From assembly GCF_003148775.1 (NCBI RefSeq), contig NZ_QGGW01000010.1:62001-126000 (forward strand): 64,000 bases of DNA, read 5' to 3'. The notes below the pieces were generated by a model that searched no databases, was not told where the DNA came from, and saw only the letters and a program-made list of their open reading frames with translations. Origin of the DNA: Roseicyclus mahoneyensis (GTDB lineage: Bacteria; Pseudomonadota; Alphaproteobacteria; Rhodobacterales; Rhodobacteraceae). Positions 10,974 through 28,325 of the stretch are shown piece after piece (the first letter of the stretch is position 1; every line of letters begins with the position of its first letter). The position numbers and the translations under genes are program-made.

Positions 10974-11057
10974 TATGCCCCCTTGGTCGTTGCAAATCCG
11001 GTTGGCCAAAAGCCTAGCCCGCCCCGCACCCCTGCGCCACATCGGAAAAGCGTGGCA

Positions 11058-14027: not shown

Positions 14028-14699
14028 ATGAATGTCGTTGTGCAAAACGTGCCGCGCGCAGATCGCGCGATCATCGAAAAGCTTGGCAAGGCGGGCGTTG
14101 CCACCGTGCATGAGGCGCAGGGACGGCGCGGCTACCTCGCCTCGTACATGCGGCCGATCTATGCGGGCGCGCAGGTGGCGGGGTCGGCGGTAACCATCAG
14201 CGCGCCGCCCGGCGACAACTGGATGCTGCATGTCGCCATCGAACAGCTGCAAGACGGTGACATCCTTGTCCTTGCCCCGACGTCGCCCTGCGACAATGGC
14301 TATTTCGGCGATCTTCTGGCGACCGCCGCGATGGCGCGGGGCTGCAAGGGGCTGGTGATCGAAGCGGGCGTGCGCGACGTGCGCGACCTGACCGCGATGG
14401 GCTTTCCGGTCTGGTCCAAGGCCGTCAGCGCCGAAGGGACGGTCAAGGAAACGCTGGGGTCGGTCAACGTGCCCATCGTCTGCGCAGGTCAGATCGTGAA
14501 CGCGGGCGACATCATTCTGGCCGATGACGATGGCGTCTGCGTCGTGCGCCGCGAAGAGGCCGAGACGGTGCTGGCCGCCGCCGAGGCGCGGTTGGCCGCC
14601 GAGGAAGCAAAGCGCGAAAAACTGGCCTCTGGCGCGCTTGGCCTCGATCTGTACGGGATGCGCGAACGGCTGGCCGCCAAGGGCCTCAAGTATGTCTGA
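14028..14699 (+). CDS. galC: 4-carboxy-4-hydroxy-2-oxoadipate aldolase, RraA-like family
   Basis: A 223-residue class II aldolase of the RraA-like fold (LigK/GalC/ProA group). It cleaves 4-carboxy-4-hydroxy-2-oxoadipate to pyruvate and oxaloacetate. Seen are the N-terminal helix with [14 protein letters not shown], the central [45 protein letters not shown] with the catalytic Arg-Asp pair (GVRDV), and the C-terminal [16 protein letters not shown]. An AGGGGG ribosome site precedes the ATG, 12 bp after galB. Its stop overlaps the start of galD. Confidence 0.88.
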
Positions 14700-15753
14700 C
14701 GGCATCCCCTGCCTGTGGATGCGGGGGGGCACGTCGAAAGGGGCCTATTTCCTCGCCCGCGACCTGCCTGCGGGGCGGGCGGCCATCGATGCGCTGATGC
14801 TCAGGATCATGGGCAGCCCGGATGCGCGCCAGATCGACGGGATCGGCGGGGGCGATCCGCTCACGTCCAAGGTGGCGATCCTGTCGCCCGCGACGCGGGA
14901 CGATGCGGATGTGGATTACCTGTTCCTGCAGGTCTTTGTCGATCAGGCGCTGGTCAGCGACGCGCAGGGCTGCGGCAATATCCTCGCCGGTGTGGGACCA
15001 GCCGCCATCGAACGCGGGTTGGTAGCGGCGCAGGACGGCGAGACGGCCGTGCGCATCCACATGGTCAACACCGGCGAGATCGCCACCGCGACGATCCAGA
15101 CGCCGGGGGGGCGCGTGGATTACACCGGCGAGACCCGCATCGACGGGGTGCCGGGCGGGCATGCGGCCGTGCCGCTGGTCTTCGGCGATGTGGCGGGCTC
15201 GATGTGCGGCAGCCTTTTGCCCACGGGTCGTGCGGTTGACGTGATCGACGGCGTCGCCTGCACGCTGATCGACAACGGGATGCCTTGTGTCGTCATGGAC
15301 GCTGCCGCATTCGGCCTCACGGGCGATGAGGCCCCCGAGGCGCTGGAGAGTGACGCAGCCCTCAAGGCGAGGATCGAGGCGATCCGCCTCAAGGCCGGGC
15401 CGATGATGGCCTTGGGCGATGTGGCGACGAAATCGGTGCCCAAGATGACGCTGGTCGCAGCCCCCCGCGCGGGGGGCGCCATCGCCACGCGCAGTTTCAT
15501 CCCCTTCCGCGTCCATTCCACCATCGGCGTCTTTGCCGCCGTGAGCGTGGCCACCGCATGCGCCCTTCCGGGCAGTCCTGCAGCGCCCTTGGCCGTCATG
15601 CCCGACGATGGCCTGTTCCGCGTCGAACACCCCACGGGCGCGGCCGAGGTGCTGCTCGAGATGGGGGCAGACTGGACGGTCCTGCGCGCCGGCGTCGTGC
15701 GCACCGCGCGCAAGCTGATGGATGGCCGCGTCTTTCCCGGCCCTAGCCGGTAA
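14692..15753 (+). CDS. galD: 4-oxalomesaconate tautomerase, PrpF family (GalD-like)
   Basis: A 353-residue PrpF/DapF-fold isomerase opening with [16 protein letters not shown], the family N-terminus. The proposed catalytic groups are present: the lysine in LTSKVAIL and the cysteine in QGCGNIL. GalD converts the keto/enol forms of 4-oxalomesaconate before GalB acts. The ATG at 14692 lies inside the end of the aldolase gene (ATGTCTGA overlap). The last 11 bp overlap the convergent TauE gene. Together galB-galC-galD form the complete lower pathway to pyruvate and oxaloacetate. No ring-cleaving dioxygenase is present in the window. Confidence 0.85.
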
Positions 15754-16495
15754 GCCCCTGCCAGATCAGGCGCAGCGAGATCAGCACAAGGATCACGTCA
15801 AGCGCCAGCTTGAAGCCGCGATCGCTGATCCGGTTCAACACCAGTCGCCCCGCAAGCGTGCCAGCAACCCCCGCCGCGACCAGCGCAAGGATCACTCCGG
15901 CCCAGGGCCCAAAGGCAAACCCGAGTAGGCCAAAGACCACGACCTTGAGCGAATGCTGCACGGTCATCAGGGCGGCATGGGTCGCCACATGGTCATGGCG
16001 CGGCAGACCCAGGGATTTGGTGTAATTCGCCGTGAACAGGCCCGTCGCCCCGAAAAACATGGTCAGAAAGCTCGACACCACCCCGGTCAGCCATGGCCAG
16101 CCCGACAGCCATTTCGGCGGCTTGGCAAAGACCGAATAGATGACAAAGACACCGATCCCGATCTGCACCACATTGGGCGGCAGCTCGACGACCACGGCGC
16201 CCCCGATGGCCGTGCCGATCAGGGACCCGATCAGGAAGCCGGGGATCACGGCGGCCCAGCTGATGTTGCGCCAGAGCATGATCGCGCGCCCGCCGTTGGA
16301 CCCCAGCTGCACCACACCATGCACCGGGATCAGGGCGGCAGGCGGCACAAGGGTTGCCATGACCGCCAGAAGCAGCCCGCCGCCGCCGATGCCCATGGCG
16401 ACCGTGATAAGCGAGGCGATGAAGCTGAAGACCATCAGCACCCAGAAAGCCACGGTCGAAAGGCCCTCGGGCAAGGTGAAGAGAAGTTCCATCAT
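15743..16495 (-). CDS. TauE/SafE family membrane permease
   Basis: A 250-residue polytopic membrane protein of the TSUP (DUF81) family, which exports sulfite, sulfonates or small organic anions. Two repeated hydrophobic halves are visible, with VAMGIGGGGLLLAVMATLVPP early and FFGATGLFTANYTKSLGL / THAALMTVQHSLKV in the second half. The ATG-ATG at 16495 follows GGAGG at good distance. Its neighbours are convergent galD and a divergent RraA remnant only 35 bp away, leaving almost no room for a promoter. Substrate unknown; an aromatic or dicarboxylic acid is possible from context. Confidence 0.85.
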   Translation of the reverse strand: MMELLFTLPEGLSTVAFWVLMVFSFIASLITVAMGIGGGGLLLAVMATLVPPAALIPVHGVVQLGSNGGRAIMLWRNISWAAVIPGFLIGSLIGTAIGGAVVVELPPNVVQIGIGVFVIYSVFAKPPKWLSGWPWLTGVVSSFLTMFFGATGLFTANYTKSLGLPRHDHVATHAALMTVQHSLKVVVFGLLGFAFGPWAGVILALVAAGVAGTLAGRLVLNRISDRGFKLALDVILVLISLRLIWQGLTG

Positions 16496-16530
16496 TATGG
16501 GGCCTCCGCGCCCCGCACAGGAGAGTCGGC

Positions 16531-16857
16531 ATGACACCGACCTGCGCTCTGTATGATCATGTCCTCGATCAGACGGGCGTCCTGCCCCCTGCCTTGCAAC
16601 ATTTCGCCGGCAGGGGCGCGTTTTCCGGCCACGCCGCCACGGTCAAGACGCATGAAATGAACACCCGCGTGCGCAAGCTGGCCCATAGCCCCGGCAAGGG
16701 GCGGGTGATGGTGGCGGACGGCGGCGGGTCGCTGCGCCGGGCGCTTATGGGGCTGGTGCTGGAGATCGAGGGCGTGCGCGTTGCCCCCGGCGACATGATC
16801 GTCGCCGATGCCGGTGGTGGGCTTGTGATCCCGCAGGGCCTGCCCCTGCCCGGCTGA
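16531..16857 (+). CDS. RraA-like protein with a large internal deletion
   Basis: A 108-residue product. Residues 1-74 match the RraA N-terminal half (LPPALQHFAGRGAFSGHAATVKT, GKGRVMVADGGGSLRRALMG). Residues 75-108 match the RraA C-terminal strand (GVRVAPGDMIVADAGGGLVIP). The roughly 55 residues between, which carry the catalytic Arg-Asp motif in family members of 160-230 residues, are missing in frame at about position 16752. A good ribosome site (AGGAGAG) remains. It is probably a catalytically dead remnant, but the frame is open and translatable. Confidence 0.75.
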   Translation: MTPTCALYDHVLDQTGVLPPALQHFAGRGAFSGHAATVKTHEMNTRVRKLAHSPGKGRVMVADGGGSLRRALMGLVLEIEGVRVAPGDMIVADAGGGLVIPQGLPLPG

Positions 16858-16865
16858 CATGCGCC

Positions 16866-17837
16866 CTACCCCCGCGCCTCGGGGTTGATCATGTGGATGG
16901 GCTGGCCGGCCGCATGGGCGTTGATCTGGGCGTAGATCTCGGCGAATTGCAGGTCCAGCTCATCCTCGGTGACAAAGCCGATATGGGGCGTGGCGATCAC
17001 GTTGGGGTGCAGGACCAGCGGGTCGACCGGCGCGGTCATCGGCTCGCGGTCGAAGACGTCGAGCGCAAGGCGGCCGGGGCGGCCTGCCGCCAGCGCCGCC
17101 TCAAGCGCGCCCTGTTCGACAAGGCCCGAGCGCGAGGTGTTGATGAAGCTGGCGGTCGGTTTCATCGCCAAAAGGTCGCCCTTGGTGAGAATGCCCTTGG
17201 TCTCGGGCTTGAGCCGGACATGGACCGAAACGAAATCGCTGTCCGCGAAAAACGCCGCGCGGCTGGCGGCCACGGTCTCGCCCGCAGCCAGGGCCTTGGC
17301 GCGGCCTGCCTCGGACGCCCACCAGACCACAGTCATGCCAAAGGCGCGGGCATAGCTTGCGACCTGTTTGGCGATGCGGCCATAGCCGTAAAGGCCGAGC
17401 GTCCGGCCGCGCAAGGACTGCCCCGGCGCAAGCTGCCATTCCCCCGCCCGAAGCGCCGCCATCTGTTGCGGGATCTGGCGGGCAGAGGCGAGAATGAGCG
17501 CAAAGGTCAGTTCGGCCGCGGCGACCGACGGCCCGTCGGCATGCATGTTCGAACACAAGAGCACGCCATTGGCGGTGCAGGCGGGCACATCGACATGGGG
17601 ATAGACGCTGCGCTGGCTGATGAGCCGCAGGTTCGGCAGGCGGTCCAGCAGCGGCGCGGTAATGGCCGTGCGCTCGCGGAACAGCACCAGCGCCTCAGCG
17701 GGCTGGAGCCTTTCGGCAAGCACGGCCACATCGTCGCTGTGGTCGGTCCAGACCGTCACCTCATGCCCGTCAAGCAGTCTAAAGCTCGGCAGGGTCCGCA
17801 GCGTGTCGAACCAGTCGTCGAGGATATGGACCTTCAT
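16866..17837 (-). CDS. D-2-hydroxyacid dehydrogenase family protein
   Basis: A 323-residue NAD-dependent dehydrogenase of the phosphoglycerate/glycerate dehydrogenase family. It has a split catalytic domain, the Rossmann loop GLYGYGRIAKQVASYARAFG near residue 145, the substrate arginine in FINTSRSGLV, and the catalytic Glu and His in FDREPM and NVIATPHIGF. The start at 17837 (MKVHILDDWFDTL) has AAGGAAC upstream; a farther ATG at 17885 has none. It is the last gene of the tctC-led operon, 87 bp after the ThDP enzyme. Its likely role is reduction of a 2-oxo acid or hydroxyacid oxidation in that pathway. Confidence 0.85.
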   Translation of the reverse strand: MKVHILDDWFDTLRTLPSFRLLDGHEVTVWTDHSDDVAVLAERLQPAEALVLFRERTAITAPLLDRLPNLRLISQRSVYPHVDVPACTANGVLLCSNMHADGPSVAAAELTFALILASARQIPQQMAALRAGEWQLAPGQSLRGRTLGLYGYGRIAKQVASYARAFGMTVVWWASEAGRAKALAAGETVAASRAAFFADSDFVSVHVRLKPETKGILTKGDLLAMKPTASFINTSRSGLVEQGALEAALAAGRPGRLALDVFDREPMTAPVDPLVLHPNVIATPHIGFVTEDELDLQFAEIYAQINAHAAGQPIHMINPEARG

Positions 17838-17924
17838 GCCGGGGCGTTCCTTGAAGTGCTGCGGGGCGAGGCCCGCGTCTGGCATACTGTGGTATACCGT
17901 GACGAAGTCAAGCGGTCTGAGGGG

Positions 17925-19592
17925 TTACTCCGCCGCCAGTTCGGGATGCGCGCGGCGGATGACAGGCGAAAACACCCGGTCCGAGATCGGCACGTCCCAG
18001 ACCGCCGCGCCGCCCGTCGCCGCGAAATCGGCGATGAGCGCGGGCAGCGCCGCCAGATCGGTGATCGTCTCCCCCCCGATGCCGAAACCGCGCGCGATGG
18101 CGGCAAGGTCGGTTGGGCCAAAGACGGCGCCTGCATCCGACAGCCCCTCGGCGCGCAGCTTGTGGATCTCGGACCCATAGGCTCGGTCGTTCAGGACAAT
18201 GATCAAGATGTTGAGGCCATGGCGGCGGATCGTCTCCAGCTCCTGCACATGCATCAGGAAAGAGCCATCGCCATCGAACAGCACCACGGTATCACCGGGC
18301 TTTGCAGCGGCCACACCCATGGCGAAGGAGGTGCCATTTCCAATCGCCCCGAACTCCCGGATCGTGAGGAAAGTGTCATGGCGGCGCGACGGCATATGGG
18401 CGAAGTAATAGGAGCAATGGCCCGAGGAATTCACCATCTGCCAATGACTTGGCAGGTGCTCTTCAAGTGCCGCCACAACATCGCGCGGGTCGTGCAGGCC
18501 GGATTCCTGCGGAAAAACGCTGCCATCGGCGGGGGTGGTGGCGATGCGCTCGGCCAGCTCGGCTGTGCAAAGGGTGGCGGGGCGTTGTGGGACGGCCTTG
18601 GTCAATGCCTCGACGCCCAGACGCGCATCGGCGCGCAGATGGGCATGGGAGGCGAGGCGGCCTTGCGAGATGGCCTGCGGGTCGGTGTCGATCTGCAGCA
18701 CACGCGCCTTGGGCCAGAGTTTCCCGGCATCGGCATTGTGCGAGGCCAGCGAGGAGCCGACGGCGATGACCAGATCGGTCTCGGCAAAGACCGCGCGCGC
18801 CACGTCGGAGGAAAAGCCCCCCGCGACGCCAAGGCAATGGGGATGGCCCACGAAAAGTCCGCGCGCGGGCAGCGTGGTGGCAAGGGCCGCATCCAGTTTC
18901 GCGGCAAGGGCCAGGCAAGCCTCGGCCGCGCCCGCCTCTGCCGCACCAAGCCCCGCCATCACGACGATGCGCGCTGCACCCGCCACCAGATCGGCGGCGC
19001 GTGCCACGTCATCGGGGTTGGGCGGCATGGGCGAGATGCGGGGCAGGATGTCGGTCGAGGGTGCGGGCAGGTCCGCAGGTCCGGTCCACGCGCCATGCTG
19101 CAGGTCGAAGGGCACGCCCAGCACCACGGGCTTGCGCGTCATCCGCGCCTCGAGGAAGGCGTCGCGGATCGCGGTCGGCATCCGGTCGGGCCAGTGCAGC
19201 GCGCGATAACTCGCCCCCGTCGCGGTGACAAAGGGCGCCTGATCGATGGCCTGATTGTACCAGCCCTTGGACATCGGCGCCTCGCCCGCCAGCACGACCA
19301 GCGGGATGTTGGCGCGCACCGCGGCGGGCAGCGCCGTCATCAGCTGCGTCAGGCCGGGGCCGCAGGTGACGGTGGCCAGCCCCACCTCGCCCGTCTTGCG
19401 GGCATAGGCCATGGCGGCGGCGACGGCGCAGTGTTCGTGGCGAACGTAGATCATGCGCGTTCCCAAGTCGCCCAGCCGGGTCGCGACATTCATGTTCGCA
19501 TCGCCCAGAAGCGCGAAACAGGTCCCCGTCCCTTCCTGCGCGATGGCGCGGGCGAGCATGTCAAAGACCATCGGGCCGCTGCCATAGGACAT
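17925..19592 (-). CDS. ThDP-dependent enzyme of the acetolactate synthase / 2-oxoacid decarboxylase family
   Basis: A 555-residue protein with all three domains. The N-terminal PYR domain contains the catalytic glutamate region (YVRHEHCAVAAAMAYAR), the middle domain is FAD/NAD-like (IVVMAGLGAAEAGAAE), and the C-terminal PP domain carries the thiamine motif FDGDGSFLMHVQELETIRRHGLNILIIVLND. The GDGSF to LND spacing is that of ThDP enzymes. The subfamily resembles those annotated as thiamine pyrophosphate-binding proteins near 2-oxoacid metabolism rather than true IlvB. The ribosome site (GGAGGG) lies in the end of the PrpF gene. In the operon it would decarboxylate or carboligate a 2-oxo acid. 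Confidence 0.8.
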   Translation of the reverse strand: MSYGSGPMVFDMLARAIAQEGTGTCFALLGDANMNVATRLGDLGTRMIYVRHEHCAVAAAMAYARKTGEVGLATVTCGPGLTQLMTALPAAVRANIPLVVLAGEAPMSKGWYNQAIDQAPFVTATGASYRALHWPDRMPTAIRDAFLEARMTRKPVVLGVPFDLQHGAWTGPADLPAPSTDILPRISPMPPNPDDVARAADLVAGAARIVVMAGLGAAEAGAAEACLALAAKLDAALATTLPARGLFVGHPHCLGVAGGFSSDVARAVFAETDLVIAVGSSLASHNADAGKLWPKARVLQIDTDPQAISQGRLASHAHLRADARLGVEALTKAVPQRPATLCTAELAERIATTPADGSVFPQESGLHDPRDVVAALEEHLPSHWQMVNSSGHCSYYFAHMPSRRHDTFLTIREFGAIGNGTSFAMGVAAAKPGDTVVLFDGDGSFLMHVQELETIRRHGLNILIIVLNDRAYGSEIHKLRAEGLSDAGAVFGPTDLAAIARGFGIGGETITDLAALPALIADFAATGGAAVWDVPISDRVFSPVIRRAHPELAAE

Positions 19593-19595
19593 CGT

Positions 19596-20687
19596 TCAGC
19601 CCTCCATCAGATGCGAGGGCACGAAGATCTCGCCCCGCGCGATCATGCGCGCGGTGCGCACGACGCCCGCCGAATGGAACTCGAACGCGTTCCCGTCGCG
19701 GGTGAAGGTGACAAGCACCTCCATCACGCCCATCGGATGTTCGATATGGATCATCTCGGGCGAACCCGTGACCGGGGCGGCGATGCCCTCGGCCACGGTG
19801 CCCGGCGCGATGGCACAGGCGGCAAGGCATTGCGAGCCGGTGACGGCCAGCGACGGATGCGTATCCCACGGCATAAAGTAGCGGGTGGTGAAATGCGCAC
19901 CGGGGATGCGGGCGGGCGCGATCAGACCCAGTTTCGGCGTGACGGATTTTGTCACATCGCCCAGCCCCATCAATTCGCCGGCTTTCATGCGGATGGGTTC
20001 CATCTTGGCGAACAGCGCCTTGTTCTCGTTCAGCTCGGCCGCCGTCTCGTAGCCCGTGATGCCGAAGTCGGATGCGCGCGCGATCATCATCGGCATGGCG
20101 ACATCGACGCAGGACACCTCCACCCCGTCGATCACGTCGATCCGGTTGCCGGTGGGGAACATCTTGCCGGTGCGCGATCCGACCACGTCGAGGAAGTTGA
20201 GCGCCACGGGCGCCGCCGTGCCCGGCACGCCCGCAATCTCGGTATCGCCCGCATAGGACACCCGGCCACCGGGCGTCTGCACCTGCGCCTCGACCAGTGC
20301 GCCGGTGTTGACGGCGCGGATGCGCACGGGCGTGACCTCGCCCGTCACGGGGACCAGCCCCATCTCGATGGCCGCGGGGCCGACGGCCACCAGCATGTTG
20401 CCGCAGGTCGGCCCGAAATCGACCATCCGCTCGGTGACGGAGACCTGAGCGAAGAAATAGTCTATATCGGCCAAGGGGTCATCAGACCGCGACAACATCG
20501 CCACCTTGGTCGTGACCGCATTGCCGCCGCCGACCCCGTCGATGTTCAGCGGATGGCCCGCGCCCACGGCGGCGATCAGCACCTCGGCCAGACGGTCGCG
20601 GTCGGCGGGCAGGTCGGCGCGGTTGAAATAGGGCCCGCGCGAGGTGCCGCCGCGCATGAAGTGAAAGGGGATCGCGGTCTGTGTCAT
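19596..20687 (-). CDS. PrpF-family isomerase (second paralogue in the window)
   Basis: A 363-residue PrpF-fold protein with FHFMRGGTSRGPYF at the start, lysine in VTTKVAML and cysteine in GPTCGNML. The family includes aconitate delta-isomerase, 2-methylaconitate isomerase and 4-oxalomesaconate tautomerase. The ATG overlaps the stop of the dehydrogenase gene (ATGA). Located between a beta-decarboxylating dehydrogenase and a ThDP enzyme, downstream of a tricarboxylate transporter, it is probably a double-bond isomerase of an unsaturated tricarboxylate. It is clearly diverged from the galD homologue at 14692. Confidence 0.85.
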   Translation of the reverse strand: MTQTAIPFHFMRGGTSRGPYFNRADLPADRDRLAEVLIAAVGAGHPLNIDGVGGGNAVTTKVAMLSRSDDPLADIDYFFAQVSVTERMVDFGPTCGNMLVAVGPAAIEMGLVPVTGEVTPVRIRAVNTGALVEAQVQTPGGRVSYAGDTEIAGVPGTAAPVALNFLDVVGSRTGKMFPTGNRIDVIDGVEVSCVDVAMPMMIARASDFGITGYETAAELNENKALFAKMEPIRMKAGELMGLGDVTKSVTPKLGLIAPARIPGAHFTTRYFMPWDTHPSLAVTGSQCLAACAIAPGTVAEGIAAPVTGSPEMIHIEHPMGVMEVLVTFTRDGNAFEFHSAGVVRTARMIARGEIFVPSHLMEG

Positions 20688-21745
20688 CTGTCTGCCTGTG
20701 CGATATGGTCAAGGATGGTGCGGGTCATGGCCCGCGTGCCCGCGGTGCCGCCCAGATCGGGCGTGCGAGTGTGAGGATTTGCCAGCGCCGCGTCGAGTGC
20801 TGCCATGATGGTATCGGCGGGGCCGGGATGGCCAAGATGGGCAAGCAGCATCGCCACAGACCCGATCAGCGAGCCGGGATTGGCGCGGTCCTGCCCCGCG
20901 ATATCGGGGGCCGAACCGTGCTGCGCCTGGGCCACCGCATGGGTGGCGCCATGGTTGAGCGAGGCGGCAAGGCCAAGCCCGCCGGCCAGTTCGGCCGCCA
21001 GATCGGACAGGATGTCGCCATACATGTTGGTCGCCACGATCACATCGAAACGGGTCGGGTCGCGCACCAGCAGGGCGGCGGCGCTGTCGACAAGGATTTC
21101 CTCGACGGCCACGCCCGGATGATCGGCGGCCACCGCGCGCACGGCCTCTAGGAACAACCCGTCCGACAGGCGCAGCACATTGGCCTTGTGGATCACGGCG
21201 ACGCGTTTGCGCGGGCGGCGTTCGGCCAGCGCAAAGGCGGATTGCGCGATGGCCGTGCTGTTTTCGCGCGTGATCTTGCGCATGGCGATGGCCAGATCGG
21301 GCGTCGGCATCACCTCGCCGGGCCCCATGTGCATGTTGCGGTCGGCGTAGAAGCCTTCGAGGTTCTCGCGCACCACCACCATGTCGACGGCATGACCCGT
21401 GGGTGTCGGCACGCCGGGGCGCGACCGCGCGGGGCGGATGTTGGCGTAAAGCTGCAAACTCTTGCGCAACACGCCCGAGGGGTTCAGCCCGCCCTCGGCC
21501 ACGGGCGGATAAGCGTTGTGCGAAACGGGGCCAAGGATGATGCCCTGCGCTGCCCGTGCCGCAGCCATCACCGCCTCGGGGATGGTGGTGCCGTGCCGGG
21601 CAAGTGCCGCAAATCCGATCTCGTGGCGGTCAAGCGCCAGTGTCACGCCATGCGCCGCGCAGGCCGCCACGGCCACCTCTTCGGTGGCCGCGACGATCTC
21701 GGGTCCGATCCCGTCCCCGGCGAGGGAAAGGAAGCGCAGGCTCAT
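20684..21745 (-). CDS. Isocitrate/isopropylmalate dehydrogenase family protein
   Basis: A 353-residue beta-decarboxylating dehydrogenase. The N-terminus [15 protein letters not shown], the substrate/catalytic segment [15 protein letters not shown] and the metal-binding [29 protein letters not shown] are all present. Family members oxidise a (2R,3S)-2-hydroxyacid at C2 and decarboxylate at C3; subgroups act on isocitrate, isopropylmalate, tartrate or homoisocitrate. The substrate-specificity region cannot be resolved by eye. It overlaps tctAB upstream and the PrpF gene downstream by 4 bp each, so it is tightly coupled to both. Confidence 0.88.
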
Positions 21746-23757
21746 CTGAGCGGCCAGGGCATGTCGATGACATCTTGCAGCAGGCCGGGCGGGAATTCAC
21801 GGCCCAGAACCCAGGCGAGGAAGACGATAAAGCTCACCCCCGCCGCCGTGTAGAGGACGGCAGAAAGCCAGGACAGGCCTGCGCGCACCCGGAAGAAAGC
21901 CACCATGAAGAGCGACAGCGCGATGATCAGCCCGAACAGGCCCGTCAGCACCAGAAGGCCAAGGAACCACGACAGGGTCCACCACAACCCGTGCGGGGCC
22001 GCGCCATCGGTGCCACCCGCCTCGAGGTCGATGAAGAGGTCGTCGGTCTCGGCGCGGCGCATCATCTTGCCCAGCATCGCAAGGCAGGCGATCAGGGTCA
22101 CGATGCCCACGGTCAGCGGGAACACCTTGTCGCCGAAGCGGTCGATCGTGGCGGCATCCGCGACAGAGATCGCCACATAGGCCGTGATCGCCAGCAAGAA
22201 GACGAAGGGCGCCCGTTTGCCGCCGGTATAGGTGTCGATGTTCTCCCGGATGTTCTTGGATTGTCTCAGACCGATGATGATCGACAGCACCGTGAGGATC
22301 AGGATTGTCACCGTGATCGGCGTCACGATATAGTCGATCCCCGCCTCGAAACTGCGGCGGAACCGGGCGGATGCGATCTGGGTCGCCATGTTGGTGAACT
22401 GCTCGGCCTGATGGGACAGAACAAAGCCGATCAGGAAGGCAGGGCGCGAGAAATCGAACCGGCGCAGCAAGATGCCGATGATGCCGATGCCCACCAGCGC
22501 GACCAGATCGCCCAGCGACTGCCGCGACTGGAAGGCGGCAAACGCGATCATCATGAACAAGAAGGGCGCCATCAGCGTGAAGCGGATGGTGGTGAGTTTC
22601 GCGATCTGCCCCGACAAGAGCACGCAAAGCCCCGCGCCGAGCACGTTGGCCAGCGCCAGCGACCAGACGATGGTGTAGGTGATGTCTAGGTCTTGCCGGA
22701 TCATCGCGGGCCCGGGCGACATGCCCAAAAGCGCCAGACCGCCAAGGAACACCGCCATCGACCCCGAACCGGGGATGCCGAAGATCAGCGTCGGCACGAG
22801 GCCCCCGCCCTCCTTGGCATTGTTGGAGCTTTCGGGCGCGATCACGCCGCGGATGTCGCCCTGACCGAACTGGTCGCGGTTCTTGGCCGATTGCACGGCA
22901 TAGCCATAGGCGATCCAGTCCACCACCGACCCGCCAAGGCCGGGGATGATGCCGACGGTCACGCCGATGGCCGCGCATTTCGTCGACAGCCACTTGTTGC
23001 GCCACCAATCGCGCAGACCATCGGTCCAACCGCGACCGAGCCCGCCGGAACTGGAGATCGAGCTGTCCTGCCGGAGGAGCGAAATAACCTCGGGGATGGC
23101 GTAGATGCCAAGGCCCACGATCACCAGTTGGAAGCCTTCGACAAGATAGGGAATGTCATAGGTCGACATGCGCAGCGACCCGCCCGCGGGCGCCGATCCG
23201 ATGGTGCCCGCCAGCAGGCCGATGCCGCAGGCGATGACGCCCTTCATCGGCACACGGCCGGCCAGAATGGCAACCATCGACATGCCGAGGATGGTGATCA
23301 TCATCATCTCGGGCAGCCCGAAGGCAAGGATCAGCGGGCGCGCGACAAAGATGATGCAGGTCAGGACGGCAGCACCCAGTAGTCCGCCGTAAAGCGACGA
23401 GATGAAGGCTGCGGCCAGTGCGCGGCCCGCCTCGCCCTTGCGGGCCAGCGGAAAGCCGTCAAGCACGGTCGCCTGGCTGGCCGACGAACCGGGAATGCCC
23501 AGAAGAACCGAAGAAAACGTGTCCGAGGTCGGGATCACCGCGATCAGGCCGACCATCAGGGCCAGTCCCGACACCGGTTCCATGCCGAACATGAAGGGCA
23601 GCACCAGCGACAGGCCCGCGATGCCGCCAAGGCCCGGCAGCACGCCGATGGACAAGCCCAGCAAAACGCCCGCCATCAGGTACATCAGTTGGGTGGGCTG
23701 GAATACGAGCGTCAGGGCCTCGCCGAGAGCCGGCAAGGCAATGGTCAGGATGTCCAT
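21742..23757 (-). CDS. tctA: Tripartite tricarboxylate transporter, fused TctA-TctB membrane protein
   Basis: A 671-residue membrane protein. Residues 1 to about 500 are TctA, the large translocating subunit, with the conserved GVLPGLGG and LLGIPGSSASQATVLDG loops and their second-half repeat (GIIPGLGGSVVDWIAYG, LIFGIPGSGSMAVFLGG). The last ~150 residues (from about RAPFVFLLAITAYVAISVAD) have the four-helix look of TctB, which is normally a separate small subunit. No separate tctB gene is seen nearby. It lies downstream of tctC and feeds into the catabolic genes by 4-bp overlap. Confidence 0.88.
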   Translation of the reverse strand: MDILTIALPALGEALTLVFQPTQLMYLMAGVLLGLSIGVLPGLGGIAGLSLVLPFMFGMEPVSGLALMVGLIAVIPTSDTFSSVLLGIPGSSASQATVLDGFPLARKGEAGRALAAAFISSLYGGLLGAAVLTCIIFVARPLILAFGLPEMMMITILGMSMVAILAGRVPMKGVIACGIGLLAGTIGSAPAGGSLRMSTYDIPYLVEGFQLVIVGLGIYAIPEVISLLRQDSSISSSGGLGRGWTDGLRDWWRNKWLSTKCAAIGVTVGIIPGLGGSVVDWIAYGYAVQSAKNRDQFGQGDIRGVIAPESSNNAKEGGGLVPTLIFGIPGSGSMAVFLGGLALLGMSPGPAMIRQDLDITYTIVWSLALANVLGAGLCVLLSGQIAKLTTIRFTLMAPFLFMMIAFAAFQSRQSLGDLVALVGIGIIGILLRRFDFSRPAFLIGFVLSHQAEQFTNMATQIASARFRRSFEAGIDYIVTPITVTILILTVLSIIIGLRQSKNIRENIDTYTGGKRAPFVFLLAITAYVAISVADAATIDRFGDKVFPLTVGIVTLIACLAMLGKMMRRAETDDLFIDLEAGGTDGAAPHGLWWTLSWFLGLLVLTGLFGLIIALSLFMVAFFRVRAGLSWLSAVLYTAAGVSFIVFLAWVLGREFPPGLLQDVIDMPWPLR

Positions 23758-23789
23758 GGGCGTCTCCCCCGGGGGCCGTCAGGAAAGCG

Positions 23790-23814
23790 CCCCCTGCACG
23801 CAGCGCGCAGGGGG
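23790..23814 (-). terminator. Hairpin between tctC and tctAB
   Basis: An 8-bp GC stem (CCCCCTGC / GCAGGGGG) with a 9-nt loop lies in the 75-bp gap after the tctC stop, on the transcribed minus strand. It has no long T-run. It probably stabilises the tctC message or partly terminates, as at the other binding-protein genes in this window. Confidence 0.6.
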
Positions 23815-23832
23815 CCGTGGATGTGCCGCGGG

Positions 23833-24933
23833 TTATTCCAGCGTCACGCCGTAATCTTCGCGCAGCCAATCGAGGACGTACTGGCGCGCCTCATCGGACA
23901 CCGTGATCGCCGCTTCGTGCGCCACAAGCGCCGCCGGGCCGATCATCTGGGGATAGACACCCAGTTCGGCCGCCGAGATTTCGGCGAAATCGGGACGCGC
24001 AAGGATTCCGGCCATCGCCGCCTCATACATCGCAACCACCTCGGGGGATGCGGTGCCGGGCAGGTAGACCAGCTTTTGCGCCGCGAAACCCGACACGAAG
24101 AAGGCACTCCATGCTTCCCAGGCCACGCCTTCGGTCTCGCAGCCTTCGGTCGCGTCGCAGATTTCGGCAAAGGTCGGGATGTCGGGGAAGGTCGGATCAC
24201 GCACGACATTGCCGTCGTTGTCCAAAATGCCCCAGGTCATGACCGGAACGGCCAGACCCTGATCCACCAGCGGCTGGACGTTGCGGATGTAGGCCGACGA
24301 TGTCTGATAGTCGATATTGGCCTCGCCCCGCTCGAACATCAGGCGACCGTCACCGCGGCCCTCGATGCCGAACACCGGCTCGACCTGAAGGCCCAGCATG
24401 CGGAAGGCCAGAAGCGGCACCAGATCGAGCGTCGTGGCGCCCTGGCTGCCGAAGATGAAGAATTCGTCTTGCAGGTCATCCATGTCGCCGTCGAAGCGCG
24501 CACCCAGATCGGCGGGCAGGTAGACGACGCCGCCGGTTCCCGAGGCCAGAACCGGGGTCCAGTCGCGGTATTCGTAGCGCACGCGCGGGTCGCGCAGTAG
24601 ATAGGGGAACTGGGTCGAGCCCGAGGTGCCGAACACCAGCGTGCCGTTGTCGGTGGTCTGCTCGGCAAACCAGTTGGCCCCCGCGGTCGAGCCCGCACCC
24701 GGGCGGTAGCGCACGACGACGGTGGGGTTGCCTTCGAGCGCCTGGCTCATAAGCGGTGCGAAGAAGTTGGCCCAGGTCGCCGAGCCGCCCGATTCCGAAA
24801 AGGGGATCACGAAGTCGACGGTGGCACCCGACAGGTCAGCGCGCGCCATCTGCGGCGCGCCTGCGGTCATCGCAAGCACGGATACGGCAACAAGGCCCAG
24901 CGCCTTGCGGCGCGTGGTCGAAAGATTGATCAT
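23833..24933 (-). CDS. tctC: Tripartite tricarboxylate transporter, periplasmic binding protein
   Basis: A 366-residue TctC/Bug-family receptor. The signal sequence has TRRKALGLVAVSVLAMTAGAPQMARA, with an R-R pair and hydrophobic core. Mature text includes VDFVIPFSESGGSATWANFFAPLM, the family ligand-site start. It is the promoter-proximal gene of the operon and has a strong ribosome site (GGGAGGAC). It is divergent from tctDE, which in known Tct systems activates tctC expression in response to citrate-like substrates. The exact tricarboxylate is not evident. Confidence 0.85.
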   Translation of the reverse strand: MINLSTTRRKALGLVAVSVLAMTAGAPQMARADLSGATVDFVIPFSESGGSATWANFFAPLMSQALEGNPTVVVRYRPGAGSTAGANWFAEQTTDNGTLVFGTSGSTQFPYLLRDPRVRYEYRDWTPVLASGTGGVVYLPADLGARFDGDMDDLQDEFFIFGSQGATTLDLVPLLAFRMLGLQVEPVFGIEGRGDGRLMFERGEANIDYQTSSAYIRNVQPLVDQGLAVPVMTWGILDNDGNVVRDPTFPDIPTFAEICDATEGCETEGVAWEAWSAFFVSGFAAQKLVYLPGTASPEVVAMYEAAMAGILARPDFAEISAAELGVYPQMIGPAALVAHEAAITVSDEARQYVLDWLREDYGVTLE

Positions 24934-25073
24934 GTCGTCCTCCCAAAGTGACCGCAGGCTCCCCCCCGCGGTCGGTTGTGCAAGATGTCATCGCACCTTG
25001 ATGCGGGGGTGATGACCTGCGAACCTTGCGCGAAGCTGTCGTGGGTCGGGAAAACTTCAGGAAGGGTGGCCCG
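24934..25073. promoter_or_regulatory. Divergent tctC / tctD control region
   Basis: This 140-bp region separates the tct transport-catabolic operon from its probable two-component regulators and is the expected binding target of TctD. I see no clean direct repeat that I would call the TctD site. Confidence 0.55.
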
Positions 25074-25754
25074 GTGCGGATCGTTCTGGTCGAGGACAAT
25101 GAGGCGTTGGCCAAGGGCATCTCCTATCGCCTGCAAGATCTCGGGCACGGGGTCGATCACCTTGCGCGTGGCGACGAGGCCGAACCGTTCTTGCGCCAAG
25201 AGGCCTGGGACCTGCTGATCCTCGACATCAACCTGCCCGGCATGGACGGCCTGACCCTCCTGCGCGGCTTGCGCGGGCGCGACGACGAGCGGCCGGTGCT
25301 GATCCTGACCGCGCAATCGGAGACGGAGCAGCGCGTGAAGGGTCTGGACGCGGGCGCCGATGACTACCTCGTGAAACCCTTCGAGATGGACGAGCTGGTG
25401 GCGCGGGTGCGCGCGATTTCACGGCGCAGTCCCCGCCCGATCCGGCGCATCCTGAGCCTTGGCGCGGTGCAGCTTGATTGTGACGCGCGGCAGGTCACCA
25501 TCGGGGCCGACCCCGTCGCCCTGCCCCGACGCGAAGTCAGCTTGCTGGAAAAGCTGCTGAGCGCCCAAGGGCGTTCGGTGTCCAAGCAAGACATCCTCGA
25601 CCATCTCTACGGCACCGGCTCGGACGTCGAGGAAGCGGCCGTCGAGGTTCATATCTCGCGCCTGCGCAAGCGGCTGAAACCCCATGGACTGTCGATCCGC
25701 GTGCAGCGCGGCATCGGCTACAGCCTGACAGATGGCGAAAGGGGGGCGGCATGA
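25074..25754 (+). CDS. tctD: Response regulator, OmpR family (TctD-like)
   Basis: A 226-residue OmpR/PhoB regulator. The receiver domain has acidic pocket E-D (VEDNEA), phospho-acceptor Asp in LLILDINLPGMDG and Lys in YLVKPFEMDELVARVR. The C-terminal winged helix contains LPRREVSLLEKLL and HISRLRKRL. I chose the GTG at 25074 because AGGAAGG precedes it and the protein then begins exactly at the receiver strand (VRIVLVEDNE); a TTG at 25026 would add 16 unlikely residues. It overlaps tctE by 4 bp and is divergent from tctC. Confidence 0.9.
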   Translation: MRIVLVEDNEALAKGISYRLQDLGHGVDHLARGDEAEPFLRQEAWDLLILDINLPGMDGLTLLRGLRGRDDERPVLILTAQSETEQRVKGLDAGADDYLVKPFEMDELVARVRAISRRSPRPIRRILSLGAVQLDCDARQVTIGADPVALPRREVSLLEKLLSAQGRSVSKQDILDHLYGTGSDVEEAAVEVHISRLRKRLKPHGLSIRVQRGIGYSLTDGERGAA

Positions 25755-27187
25755 GGGCCTCGACCTCGCTCAGGCTGCGGCTGACGGTCATCATCTTGCT
25801 TCCGTTGCTCGTGATCGCGCTGGCGGTGGGGTTCTGGCAGGTGCGCGACGCCCGCGTGCAGGCGGCGGGTATCTTCGACCGTAGCCTTCTGACCGTGGCG
25901 CTGGCGGTCAAGGGCGACGTGGCGCGCTCGAACGGCAACGCGGTGTCGCTGGAAACCCGTGACCTGCTGGCCGATACCTCGGGCGGTCCGGTGTTCTACC
26001 ATGTCCATGCGCCCAACGGCTATTACGTCACGGGGTTTGCCACGCCGCCGGTGCGGCTCAACCCGGACCCGGACGCGGGCGACAGCCCCTACTCCTACTA
26101 CAATTCCACCTATTACGGCGAAGAGGTCCGCGCGCTGCGCCTGCGCGACGTGACCACGGTGGACGGCATCACCGGCACCTTCACCATCACGGTCTGGCAA
26201 CAGGTCGAGGTGCGCGACGCGCTGATGCGCGATCTGGCCGGGCGGGCCTTTGTGGTCATGGCAGTGCTGATCGGAACCGTGGCCTTCGTGGTCTGGTTCG
26301 GCGTGCTGCGCGGTCTGCGCCCCTTGCTGGATCTGGAAGATGCGATCTCGCAGCGCTCCTCGGACGACCTTTCCCCGATCCGCCGCCCGGTTCCGCCCGA
26401 GATCCGCGGCCTCGTCAAGCGGCTGAACCTTTTGTTCGGGCAGGTCGAGGCGTCGATGGCGCGGCAGGCAAGCTTTATCTCGAATGCGGCGCATCAGTTG
26501 CGCAACCCGATCGCGGGCGTTCTGGCGATGGCCGAGGCCGTGCGCTCGGCCCCGACGGATCGCGCCGCGCGCGACCGGGCGGGCGAATTGCTGGTCTCGG
26601 CCCGCGACCTCAAGGATCTGGCCAACAAGCTTTTGACGCTGGAGCGCGCAAGCCATGCAGGCGAGCGCCGCGAGCCGCTGGAACTGGGCGAGGCGCTGGA
26701 GGATGTGGTCGACCGCTACCGCGCCGCCGCCCGTGCGCGCGGCGTAGCACTGACCATCGCGCTGCCCGATGACGAGATCTGCGTCTCGGCCGATCCGGTG
26801 ATGCTGCGCGAGGCCTTGGGCAACCTGATCGACAATGCACTGAAACACGGTGGGCCGGACCTCGGGCGGATCGCCGTATCACTGGCCGCCGAGACCGACC
26901 GTGCCCTGATCCGCGTCACCGATGACGGCCGCGGCGTGGCCGCCAAGGATGTCGAGACGGTGCTGGCGCGCTTCGGTCAGGCAGGGCCGTCCGAGGGCAG
27001 CGGTCTGGGCCTGTCCATCGCCGAGACGGTGGCGCTGTCGCATGGCGGCGGTGTCGCGCTGGACCGGTCCGAGGGCGGTGGACTGTCGGTCTCGGTCAGC
27101 CTGCCCTTGCCGACGGGGACCGCGCCCCCCCTGCCCCGCGCGCCACGTCCGATGCCCCTGCCATCGCGGGCGGCCCCTGCCGAATAG
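25751..27187 (+). CDS. tctE: Sensor histidine kinase (TctE-like)
   Basis: A 478-residue membrane kinase. TM1 lies at about residues 12-32, a 150-residue periplasmic sensor of the TctE N-terminal type follows, and TM2 is at about 168-190. The phospho-acceptor is in NAAHQLRNPIAGVLAM. The ATP-binding boxes are LGNLIDNALKHGG, DDGRGV and GSGLGLSIAETVALSHGG. The proline-rich C-terminal tail is unusual but short. It is paired with the response regulator by a 4-bp overlap and probably senses the tricarboxylate imported by TctABC. Confidence 0.9.
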   Translation: MRASTSLRLRLTVIILLPLLVIALAVGFWQVRDARVQAAGIFDRSLLTVALAVKGDVARSNGNAVSLETRDLLADTSGGPVFYHVHAPNGYYVTGFATPPVRLNPDPDAGDSPYSYYNSTYYGEEVRALRLRDVTTVDGITGTFTITVWQQVEVRDALMRDLAGRAFVVMAVLIGTVAFVVWFGVLRGLRPLLDLEDAISQRSSDDLSPIRRPVPPEIRGLVKRLNLLFGQVEASMARQASFISNAAHQLRNPIAGVLAMAEAVRSAPTDRAARDRAGELLVSARDLKDLANKLLTLERASHAGERREPLELGEALEDVVDRYRAAARARGVALTIALPDDEICVSADPVMLREALGNLIDNALKHGGPDLGRIAVSLAAETDRALIRVTDDGRGVAAKDVETVLARFGQAGPSEGSGLGLSIAETVALSHGGGVALDRSEGGGLSVSVSLPLPTGTAPPLPRAPRPMPLPSRAAPAE

Positions 27188-27193
27188 CGCGCC

Positions 27194-28261
27194 TCAGGCG
27201 TCGGGATCGCCGCGCGGCTTTGCGGTCACGCCAAAGATCCGGGCCGCGATGGGCGCGCCGGTGATGACGAACAAGATGCGGGTGAGGTGGTGGACGACGA
27301 TGAAGCCCAGATCCGCACCCGCGACGATGGCCAGAACCGTCATTTCCGCCTGTCCGCCGGGGGCGAAGGACAAGAAGCCTTCGACCGGGCCCGCCAGCCC
27401 CGCCAGCACCACGATCTCTGTGAAAATCGCGGCCAGCGCGGCAAGGATCAGAACGAACAAGAGCCCCGCCGCCACGTCTCGGCGCAGTTCGTGCCATGTG
27501 ACGCCGACATACCCCACGCCGATGCCGATCCCGATCAGGAATTGCGCCAGCAAGATGGCCTCGGCAGGCGGGCGCACATGTATCAGGTCCGACAGGCTGA
27601 GGATGGCGGTCACGATCATCGGCCCAAGGATCGAAGCCCCGAAGAGCCCGATCCGCTCGCCCCCCTTCCAGCCGACCAGCGCCGCCGCCACCATCAGCGC
27701 CAGTTCCGCCAGCGGCAGTTCCGCCGCCGGCTGGCCGATGGGTATGTCGAGCGTCTGGCCGAAGCCATAGACCAGTATTGCGGGGGCAATCGTCACGATG
27801 ATCAGCACACGCGTGGCATGGATCAGTGACAGGGCGCGCACATCCGCCCCCGCCTCCTGCCCGAAGATCACCATGTCCTGCAGACCGCCGGGCATCGCCG
27901 CATACCACGAGGTCGGCCAGTCGAAGCCATAAACCTTGCGGAAAAACGGCACGCCTATGGCTGCGATGACCACGACGTAGATCGGAACCAAGGCCACCGA
28001 GATTGCCATCTGTGGCAATTGCCCGATCAGCGCGGGCGTGATCGATGCACCCACTGCCACGCCCAGAATGGTGCGCGCGCCGACCGAGACCTGCCCCATC
28101 CCCTTGAGCCGGACGCCCGCCAGTGCGGCGATCAGGCAGGCGGTCATCGGCCCGAAGAGAAACGGCAGCGGCAGGCCCAGCACCCAAAACACCGCCAGCC
28201 CCCCGAAGGCCAGCGCCAGTGTCCGGGCACGGTCGGTGGCGGCGGGGGAAAGCTTGGCCAT
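27194..28261 (-). CDS. AbrB-family (DUF-type) polytopic membrane protein
   Basis: A 355-residue membrane protein of the AbrB/ammonia-monooxygenase-like family, made of two repeats of about six helices. Motifs seen are LPFLFGPMTACLIAALAGVRLKG in the first half and PGGQAEMTVLAIVAGADLGFIVVHHLTRI in the second. Family members lie near transport and catabolic genes and may be transporters; the biochemical role is unknown. The ATG at 28261 follows AAGGAG; an upstream ATG at 28285 adds only basic residues. It is convergent with tctE and divergent from the GntR gene, so it is probably under GntR control. Confidence 0.75.
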   Translation of the reverse strand: MAKLSPAATDRARTLALAFGGLAVFWVLGLPLPFLFGPMTACLIAALAGVRLKGMGQVSVGARTILGVAVGASITPALIGQLPQMAISVALVPIYVVVIAAIGVPFFRKVYGFDWPTSWYAAMPGGLQDMVIFGQEAGADVRALSLIHATRVLIIVTIAPAILVYGFGQTLDIPIGQPAAELPLAELALMVAAALVGWKGGERIGLFGASILGPMIVTAILSLSDLIHVRPPAEAILLAQFLIGIGIGVGYVGVTWHELRRDVAAGLLFVLILAALAAIFTEIVVLAGLAGPVEGFLSFAPGGQAEMTVLAIVAGADLGFIVVHHLTRILFVITGAPIAARIFGVTAKPRGDPDA

Positions 28262-28325
28262 GGGACGTCTCCTTCTTGCATCCATCTGTATCCAACTGTA
28301 TGCGATTTACAAGAGAGGGAGCGCG

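What the first reader, a model, noticed from the sequence alone, without database searches (positions are those of the whole stretch)
16866..24933. Undescribed tricarboxylate operon: TctC-TctAB-dehydrogenase-PrpF-ThDP enzyme-2-hydroxyacid dehydrogenase
Six genes on one strand, the middle ones overlapping by 4 bp, under divergent TctDE control. The order suggests import of a tricarboxylate, double-bond isomerisation (PrpF), oxidative beta-decarboxylation (ICDH-like), ThDP-dependent 2-oxoacid decarboxylation and a hydroxyacid dehydrogenase step. I know of no named pathway with this combination.
Basis: partly seen in the sequence, partly recalled or inferred. Interest (0 to 1): 0.75.

Follow-up and report, generated by a model that had tools for sequence, protein, structure and literature searches.

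The report
Modular tricarboxylate-use gene island
A bacterium close to marine Roseicyclus carries a conserved but uncharacterised set of genes that probably imports an unusual three-acid compound and feeds it into central metabolism; its steps look like exchangeable modules rather than one fixed pathway.

Summary
The six genes and the divergent TctDE-like pair are real, at the stated coordinates, with two 4-bp overlaps and one 3-bp gap. Among 147 genomes (own included), this PrpF is in 32 of 32 with the TctA homologue and 1 of 115 without. TcuA follows (28/32), then 2-hydroxyacid dehydrogenase (21), ThDP enzyme (18), Iso_dh (13). Only 9 of 32 have all three accessory enzymes, and ThDP and Iso_dh are uncoupled (p=0.29), so a single linear chain is not supported. 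The PrpF is a clade apart from the GalD copy 4 kb away. Best reading: an importer-isomerase-TcuAB core for a tricarballylate/aconitate-like acid, with optional enzymes for hydroxy/oxo homologues. Substrate and all catalytic steps are inferred. The genome shows no LigB-type ring-cleavage dioxygenase and no Amidohydro_2 (LigI-type) protein, so what feeds its OMA module is unknown. My searches of an open-licence library found no description of the combination. New variant of a known kind; moderate interest.

The parts
23833..24933 (-). TctC-like periplasmic receptor, 366 aa
   Evidence: Pfam TctC 20.6 bits, below cut-off 27; predicted fold matches TctC/Bug receptors; in 48 of 49 TctAB loci
21742..23757 (-). 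TctA permease with C-terminal extension (possible fused TctB), 671 aa
   Evidence: PF01970 382 bits; TctB not detected
20684..21745 (-). Iso_dh family dehydrogenase, 353 aa
   Evidence: PF00180 295 bits; below the cut-off of all 16 NCBIfam models listed; segment around N-P-S-G-V-L-R conserved in near relatives
19596..20687 (-). PrpF-family isomerase/tautomerase, core clade, 363 aa
   Evidence: PF04303; NF033377 463.8 vs 440; closest PDB chain YbhH 6otv; own clade 100/100; Lys61 and Cys95 kept in 47 of 47 core rows
17925..19592 (-). ThDP-dependent enzyme, 555 aa
   Evidence: three ThDP domains; none of the 25 NCBIfam models shown (of 54) reached; model pLDDT 91; the 50 PDB rows shown are 21-28% identical
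16866..17885 (-). D-2-hydroxyacid dehydrogenase, 339 aa (Met17 at 17837 may be the true start)
   Evidence: PF02826/PF00389
25022..25037 (-). AGSTTN6AGSTT direct repeat, 11-bp period: candidate TctD box
   Evidence: only match in 64 kb; in 16 of 24 promoter stretches (window and 23 loci with TctE); mononucleotide shuffles mean 0.004
25026..25754 (+). TctD-like response regulator (the listed TTG start lies inside the candidate box; true start probably about 25074)
   Evidence: TctD model 189 bits, cut-off 337
25751..27187 (+). TctE-like sensor kinase
   Evidence: 2CSK_N, HisKA, HATPase_c
27194..28285 (-). AbrB-type membrane protein
   Evidence: PF05145; in 26 of 49 TctAB loci
28038..29009 (+). 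GntR/FCD regulator (ORF; true start further in)
29006..30400 (+). TcuA, FAD-dependent tricarballylate dehydrogenase
   Evidence: NF006130 679.8 vs 369, TIGR02485 601.2 vs 372.55
30390..31478 (+). TcuB, 4Fe-4S electron-transfer partner
   Evidence: TIGR02484 347.1 vs 246.6; NF011607 364.2 is below its cut-off 524
15743..16537 (-). TauE/SafE-family permease
   Evidence: PF01925; in 32 of 49 TctAB loci
16531..16857 (+). RraA-like ORF of 108 aa, shorter than the 161 aa of L030
14692..15753 (+). GalD, 4-oxalomesaconate tautomerase
   Evidence: NF033377 503.3 vs 440; gal clade
14028..14699 (+). GalC/LigK, 4-carboxy-4-hydroxy-2-oxoadipate aldolase
   Evidence: NF006731 382.7 vs 179, TIGR02798 373.4 vs 304.5
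13284..14015 (+). PIG-L family protein, GalB-like (OMA hydratase by family and position only)
   Evidence: PF02585; the two NCBIfam hits are bacillithiol deacetylases, far below cut-off
12240..13112 (-). DUF1932 / NAD_binding_2 dehydrogenase
   Evidence: 12 of 49 TctAB loci
11014..12243 (-). LysR-type regulator, two HTH_1 stretches

Best explanation
The locus is a modular uptake-and-catabolism island for tricarballylate/aconitate-type tricarboxylates. Core (its conservation is shown, its function inferred): the TctC-TctA importer, switched on by TctDE, brings in the acid; the core-clade PrpF moves a double bond (trans- to cis-aconitate, or the same move on a close homologue); TcuA-TcuB dehydrogenate the saturated acid (tricarballylate to cis-aconitate, electrons to quinone), and housekeeping aconitase finishes the job. 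Optional modules widen the substrate range: D-2-hydroxyacid dehydrogenase interconverts a 2-hydroxy and a 2-oxo acid, Iso_dh oxidatively decarboxylates an isocitrate-like acid, and the ThDP enzyme decarboxylates a 2-oxo polycarboxylate to an aldehyde. The neighbouring GalB/C/D-like module would take C7 2-oxo-ene tricarboxylates to pyruvate and oxaloacetate. Shown: gene content, order, clades, co-occurrence, promoter repeat. Inferred: every catalytic step and the substrate.
For: PrpF with TctAB in 32/32 vs 1/115 genomes, 20/20 vs 0/114 outside the own genus; TcuA 28/32 vs 7/115. TcuA within 20 kb of TctAB in 17 of 28. On a Roseivivax plasmid nearly the whole island, without TctDE; on a Pacificitalea plasmid TauE, ThDP, PrpF, TctA, TctC, GntR, TcuAB, Iso_dh and DUF1932 in one row; on two Paracoccus plasmids TctA, PrpF, TcuAB, GntR, AbrB, Iso_dh. 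TcuA and TcuB reach curated cut-offs. L131 and L132 keep TctC-TctAB-Iso_dh-PrpF and TcuAB without the ThDP gene. Core PrpF is a clade apart from GalD and keeps Lys61 and Cys95, presumably the counterparts of K73 and C107, which Shewanella PrpF needs in vivo; that enzyme interconverts trans- and cis-aconitate (PMC5690661, passages; I made no alignment with it). TarA/TbrA aconitate isomerases belong to the PrpF superfamily (PMC11495376, passages). The only 11-bp-period repeat of its kind in the window lies in the tctC-tctD gap.
Against: By sequence the core PrpF is nearer to YbhH (350 bits), the (4E)-oxalomesaconate Delta-isomerase (298) and 3-methylitaconate isomerase (209) than to PrpF proper (139), and it passes the NCBIfam OMA-tautomerase cut-off: its substrate may be OMA-like rather than aconitate. 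4 of 32 TctAB genomes lack TcuA, and in 11 of 28 it is more than 20 kb away or on another contig. No second copy of the candidate TctD box lies before tcuA or the gal genes, so they are not shown to be one regulon. 8 of 24 promoter stretches lack the repeat. The p-values ignore phylogeny. No ligand, growth or expression data exist.
Confidence: 0.55

Rival explanations
1. The imported acid is a C7, OMA-type or 2-oxo/2-hydroxy-butane-tricarboxylate compound. The core PrpF tautomerises it, a TcuAB-like dehydrogenase makes the double bond, and the flanking GalB/C/D-like module cleaves it to pyruvate and oxaloacetate.
For: Core PrpF is closest to YbhH and the OMA Delta-isomerase and passes the OMA-tautomerase cut-off. 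GalC is within 20 kb of TctAB in 11 of 19 genomes having both. The own genome shows no LigB-family dioxygenase and no Amidohydro_2 protein that could feed OMA from gallate, protocatechuate or pyrone-dicarboxylate; 3 of 19 GalC+TctAB genomes have LigB against 9 of 14 GalC genomes without TctAB (p=0.009).
Against: GalC is absent from 13 of 32 TctAB genomes. A second, dedicated GalD is present, so the core PrpF is not needed for OMA. Some relatives carry an Amidohydro_2-type gene beside the gal genes (e.g. L036), an ordinary feeder. No natural source of the C7 acid is known to me.
Confidence: 0.22
2. One reading: PrpF isomerisation, ICDH-like beta-decarboxylation, ThDP 2-oxoacid decarboxylation, hydroxyacid dehydrogenase, in that order.
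For: Iso_dh, PrpF, ThDP and 2-hydroxyacid dehydrogenase stand in a row here and in L031, L037, L039, L047, L049, L065, L068 (a small called ORF intervenes in L039). Iso_dh and 2-hydroxyacid dehydrogenase are weakly coupled, p=0.011.
Against: Only 9 of 32 TctAB genomes have ThDP, Iso_dh and 2HDH together; ThDP and Iso_dh are not coupled, p=0.29; L131/L132 lack ThDP; L030, 86% identical in ThDP, lacks Iso_dh in the operon.
Confidence: 0.1
3. The ThDP/Iso_dh enzymes serve a different chemistry (small hydroxy or oxo acids, e.g. tetronate-, purine- or amide-derived) and share the locus only because the importer is broad.
For: ThDP homologues elsewhere lie by genes that look like guanine deaminase and PuuD (L077, L098) and F420 genes (7 loci; labels by eye). 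A GGT-family hydrolase is linked in 22 of 49 TctAB loci, the near homologues. Iso_dh homologues lie by 3-oxo-tetronate kinase (L155, L156).
Against: Apart from GGT these contexts belong to more distant homologues (ThDP about 62-65%, Iso_dh 52-53% identical); in the loci nearest to the window the partners are TctC, TctA, PrpF and TcuAB.
Confidence: 0.13

Closest known systems
Salmonella-type tricarballylate utilisation (TcuABC)
   Same: TcuA and TcuB reach their curated cut-offs; dehydrogenation of a tricarboxylate with electrons to quinone (recalled)
   Different: A TctC-TctA importer is linked instead of the TcuC carrier (TcuC recalled, not searched for); GntR rather than LysR-type TcuR beside it (TcuR recalled); linked PrpF, ThDP, Iso_dh, 2HDH
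E. coli ybhHI
   Same: OMA-tautomerase-like PrpF protein beside a putative tricarboxylate transporter (PMC9068703, passages); YbhH is the closest solved structure
   Different: Different transporter family and a LysR (YbhD) instead of TctDE; no TcuAB there (recalled)
tar operon for trans-aconitate (TarA PrpF-superfamily isomerase, TarB importer), Bacillus velezensis
   Same: Importer plus PrpF-superfamily isomerase (PMC11495376, passages)
   Different: The passages name only TarA, TarB and regulator TarR; no dehydrogenase or ThDP enzyme is mentioned in them
Gallate / protocatechuate 4,5-cleavage lower pathway (GalB, GalC, GalD; LigU, LigK)
   Same: GalC- and GalD-type genes a few kb away reach cut-offs; core PrpF is a relative of GalD, 44% identical
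   Different: No LigB-family dioxygenase and no Amidohydro_2 protein found in this genome

Membership tests
Tripartite tricarboxylate transporter (TctCBA) | TctA large permease | tested here: met
   PF01970 382 bits
Tripartite tricarboxylate transporter (TctCBA) | TctC receptor | tested here: met
   By fold: TctC/Bug receptors, E 3.2e-10. By Pfam score not met: 20.6 vs 27; no NCBIfam hit
Tripartite tricarboxylate transporter (TctCBA) | TctB small permease | tested here: inconclusive
   No separate gene between TctC and Iso_dh; extra C-terminal ~220 residues of the TctA ORF not recognised by Pfam
TctDE two-component system | TctD equivalog score | tested here: not met
   189 bits vs cut-off 337, though TctD is the best NCBIfam hit
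Tricarballylate utilisation (Tcu) | TcuA and TcuB | tested here: met
   NF006130, TIGR02485, TIGR02484 over cut-off; the TcuB subfamily model NF011607 is not reached
Tricarballylate utilisation (Tcu) | TcuC carrier | not tested
   no search made
Tricarballylate utilisation (Tcu) | tricarballylate as substrate | not testable with these tools
   needs assay
2-methylaconitate isomerase PrpF (propionate) | TIGR02334 cut-off | tested here: not met
   161.3 vs 440.55 bits
4-oxalomesaconate tautomerase | NF033377 cut-off | tested here: met
   463.8 vs 440, but a clade apart from the GalD copies
Isocitrate/isopropylmalate/homoisocitrate/tartrate dehydrogenase | NCBIfam cut-offs | tested here: not met
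   none of 16 models reached; best subfamily 284 vs 410, best equivalog 275 vs 510
Acetohydroxyacid synthase and other named ThDP enzymes | NCBIfam cut-offs | tested here: not met
   none of the 25 models shown (of 54) reached; best 206 vs 538 bits
Gallate/PCA 4,5-cleavage pathway | LigB-type ring-cleaving dioxygenase in the genome | tested here: not met
   PF02900: 0 matches in a genome rated 99.99% complete
Pyrone-dicarboxylate route to OMA | Amidohydro_2 (LigI) protein in the genome | tested here: not met
   PF04909: 0 matches

The most novel reading that the evidence does not exclude
The island is a non-aromatic entry into the oxalomesaconate/CHA pathway. A saturated C7 hydroxy-tricarboxylate from dissolved organic matter is imported by TctC-TctA, oxidised to its 2-oxo acid by the 2-hydroxyacid dehydrogenase, dehydrogenated by the TcuAB-type complex to oxalomesaconate, and split by the GalB/C/D-like module to pyruvate and oxaloacetate; the ThDP branch decarboxylates the same 2-oxo acid towards tricarballylate. 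The 'gallate' lower pathway would then work without any aromatic ring.
Probability: 0.15. Interest if true: 0.7.

Novelty: new variant of a known kind. Interest (0 to 1): 0.45.

Why it matters
A conserved, sometimes plasmid-borne set of genes in Rhodobacterales and relatives has no assigned substrate in the papers I could search. It joins a known tricarballylate dehydrogenase to a separate PrpF clade and an unassigned ThDP enzyme, so its substrate is directly testable and could show how these bacteria use polycarboxylates. It also warns that the automatic name '4-oxalomesaconate tautomerase' covers two PrpF clades, and that GalB/C/D-like genes need not mean aromatic degradation: this genome shows no ring-cleavage dioxygenase to feed them.

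Tried and rejected
Citrate/isocitrate pathway by name: rejected, no cut-off reached for the Iso_dh protein (16 models) or among the 25 ThDP models shown. ThDP enzyme as acetohydroxyacid synthase: not reached (206 vs 538 bits); the 50 structure matches shown are 21-28% identical, so fold does not name the reaction. Sulfonate catabolism because of TauE: thought of, no search made. Replacement of the 2-hydroxyacid dehydrogenase near the ThDP gene by other oxidising enzymes: counts too small to use (of the 80 loci, Ldh_2-like in 4, FMN-oxidase-like in 1, aldehyde dehydrogenase-like in 6). Reading the Iso_dh specificity segment (N-P-S-G-V): conserved in near relatives, varied in distant ones; comparison with ICDH Ser113/Asn115 is recalled and names no substrate. 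Papers: searches found no description of this combination; only open-licence PMC papers were searched and only listings and passages were seen (passages of PMC11495376, PMC5373536, PMC10370305, PMC9068703, PMC5690661; PMC5373536 and PMC10370305 did not help).

Dropped or limited: loci were retrieved with the ThDP protein, so ThDP is present by construction; 80 of 154 confirmed stretches were kept by the tool; flanks were 9 kb or less and many contigs short, so neighbour counts are lower bounds. The PrpF count of 42 includes L052, whose only copy is GalD-type; the core count is 41 of 49. Gene calls come from my own codon-bias script. E-value limits for presence were my choice. In one search at least L031, L041, L053, L065 and L068 look like misses because the script's tctC start is off; they stay counted as misses. 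Structure predictions used 40 and 21 chosen homologues out of larger sets.


Full report
What is there. In order of transcription they are a TctC-like receptor (366 aa), a TctA permease with a C-terminal extension (671 aa), an Iso_dh dehydrogenase (353 aa), a PrpF protein (363 aa), a ThDP enzyme (555 aa) and a D-2-hydroxyacid dehydrogenase (339 aa). Two junctions overlap by 4 bp and one gap is 3 bp, so one transcript is likely. Divergent is a response regulator and kinase of the TctDE kind; TctD is the best NCBIfam hit but below its cut-off. The receptor scores below Pfam's TctC cut-off; its predicted structure (pLDDT 78) matches terephthalate, malate and BugD receptors of the TctC family.

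The island is larger than the finding. Beyond TctE follow AbrB (minus strand) and, on the plus strand, GntR, TcuA and TcuB (27194-31478); TcuA and TcuB exceed curated cut-offs (one TcuB subfamily model, NF011607, is not reached). Beyond the 2-hydroxyacid dehydrogenase lie a short RraA-like ORF and TauE, then GalB-like (PIG-L), GalC and GalD genes on the plus strand, with DUF1932 and LysR behind them. GalC and GalD exceed their cut-offs; the PIG-L gene is GalB-like only by family and position.

Conservation. A scan of GTDB genomes with the ThDP protein gave 80 loci (the best 80 of 154). Of 49 with this TctA, 48 have the TctC, 41 the core PrpF, 32 TauE, 27 the 2-hydroxyacid dehydrogenase, 26 AbrB, 23 TctE, 22 a gamma-glutamyltransferase-like gene, 16 TcuA, 12 DUF1932 and 9 Iso_dh; 7 of these 9 have Iso_dh between TctAB and PrpF. 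Since this set was fetched with the ThDP protein, I repeated the test without that bias in 147 genomes, own included. TctAB occurs in 32. PrpF is in 32 of these 32 and in 1 of the other 115 (own genus excluded: 20/20 vs 0/114). TcuA: 28/32 vs 7/115. 2-hydroxyacid dehydrogenase: 21/32 vs 2/115. ThDP: 18/32 vs 4/115. Iso_dh: 13/32 vs 5/115. CHA aldolase: 19/32 vs 14/115. LigB dioxygenase shows no association (8/32 vs 42/115). These tests ignore shared ancestry.

The accessory enzymes are not one pathway. Among the 32, 9 have ThDP, Iso_dh and 2-hydroxyacid dehydrogenase together and 4 have none of the three. ThDP with Iso_dh: 9 both, 9 ThDP only, 4 Iso_dh only, 10 neither, p=0.29. ThDP with 2-hydroxyacid dehydrogenase: p=1. 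Iso_dh with 2-hydroxyacid dehydrogenase is weakly coupled, p=0.011. Two genomes keep TctC-TctAB-Iso_dh-PrpF and TcuAB with no ThDP gene in the stretch (L131, L132). Elsewhere Iso_dh stands directly after TcuB (Pacificitalea and Roseivivax plasmids; L114, L120, L115). This argues for a core (importer, PrpF, usually TcuAB) with exchangeable modules.

The two PrpF proteins of the window belong to different clades: in a tree of 57 rows the 47 core copies and the 10 GalD-type copies are the two sides of one 100/100 branch, and the two window copies share 44% identity. Lys61 and Cys95 are kept in all 57 rows. They are presumably the counterparts of K73 and C107, which Shewanella PrpF needs in vivo (PMC5690661, passages); I made no alignment with that protein. 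It interconverts trans- and cis-aconitate. The closest solved structure of the core copy is YbhH, then the (4E)-oxalomesaconate Delta-isomerase; PrpF proper is further off. YbhH is encoded beside a putative tricarboxylate transporter in E. coli (PMC9068703, passages). NCBI's model calls the core copy an OMA tautomerase (463.8 vs 440 bits); the tree shows that this label joins two clades.

The OMA module has no visible aromatic feeder here. The genome (rated 99.99% complete) has no match to the LigB dioxygenase family or to Amidohydro_2. That gallate and protocatechuate 4,5-dioxygenases belong to the LigB family, and the pyrone-dicarboxylate hydrolase LigI to Amidohydro_2, is recalled. In the 147 genomes CHA aldolase lies within 20 kb of TctAB in 11 of the 19 that have both; 3 of those 19 have LigB, against 9 of 14 CHA-aldolase genomes without TctAB (p=0.009). 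Some relatives do carry an Amidohydro_2-type gene in the locus (cluster in 5 of 80 loci, 4 of 49 with TctAB), so an ordinary feeder exists there. In the window's own lineage the module probably receives OMA or a homologue from another source; the acid imported by the neighbouring operon is the obvious candidate, but this is inference.

Regulation. The tctC-tctD gap holds AGSTTN6AGSTT, a direct repeat of 11-bp period as expected for an OmpR-type regulator (expectation recalled). It is the only match in the window and is found in 16 of 24 promoter stretches (window and 23 loci with TctE), against a mean of 0.004 in mononucleotide shuffles. It overlaps the listed TTG start of tctD, whose true start is therefore probably about 25074. 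No copy lies before tcuA or the gal genes, which have GntR and LysR neighbours.

ThDP enzyme. Over P0005 and 40 homologues (45-86% identical to it) the segments RHEH and TCGPG are invariant and S-E-x-H-K invariant or nearly so. The model is confident (pLDDT 91), but the 50 solved matches shown (acetolactate/acetohydroxyacid synthases, 2-hydroxyacyl-CoA lyases, an HKA synthase) are 21-28% identical. The reaction is unassigned; decarboxylation of a 2-oxo polycarboxylate is my inference from its neighbours.

Verdict. Observation confirmed; linear pathway not supported; a conserved modular tricarboxylate island with an unknown substrate is the best reading. I found no paper that describes it, within an open-licence library only.

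Noticed in passing
window 16531-16857 (+): RraA-like ORF of 108 aa next to TauE; L030 has 161 aa (L030:11656-12141). Only about the first 75 residues match the RraA profiles.
   Followed up: partly
window 11014-12243 (-): LysR-type regulator of 409 aa in which Pfam counts two HTH_1 stretches.
   Followed up: no
L072, L075, L082, L083, L086, L087, L094: In seven loci titled mostly as betaproteobacterial MAGs the ThDP homologue lies near genes that look like CofC, CofD or CofE (F420 synthesis); several also show a luciferase-like monooxygenase and a dienelactone-hydrolase-like gene. Labels are mine from sequence starts, not from a family search.
   Followed up: partly
L077, L098: In Nisaea the ThDP homologue lies between TcuAB and genes that look like guanine deaminase and PuuD (labels by eye).
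   Followed up: no
L032:771-2561 and 21 other TctAB loci: A gamma-glutamyltransferase-family gene (below the NCBIfam cut-off) is linked to the operon in 22 of 49 loci; a 58% identical copy also lies in L144 near a distant ThDP homologue.
   Followed up: partly
window 33430-34485 (-): Ldh_2 dehydrogenase; on Roseivivax and Paracoccus plasmids (L151, L152, L157) an Ldh-family gene lies one or two genes from Iso_dh.
   Followed up: partly
L153 (Roseomonas mucosa plasmid): Iso_dh homologue in a row with amidohydrolase, Ldh, succinate-semialdehyde dehydrogenase and SerA, beside TctC/TctA genes: another possible variant.
   Followed up: no
L102:8085-8888: HpcH/HpaI-type aldolase directly before a ThDP homologue, after an FAD-binding monooxygenase-type gene.
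   Followed up: no
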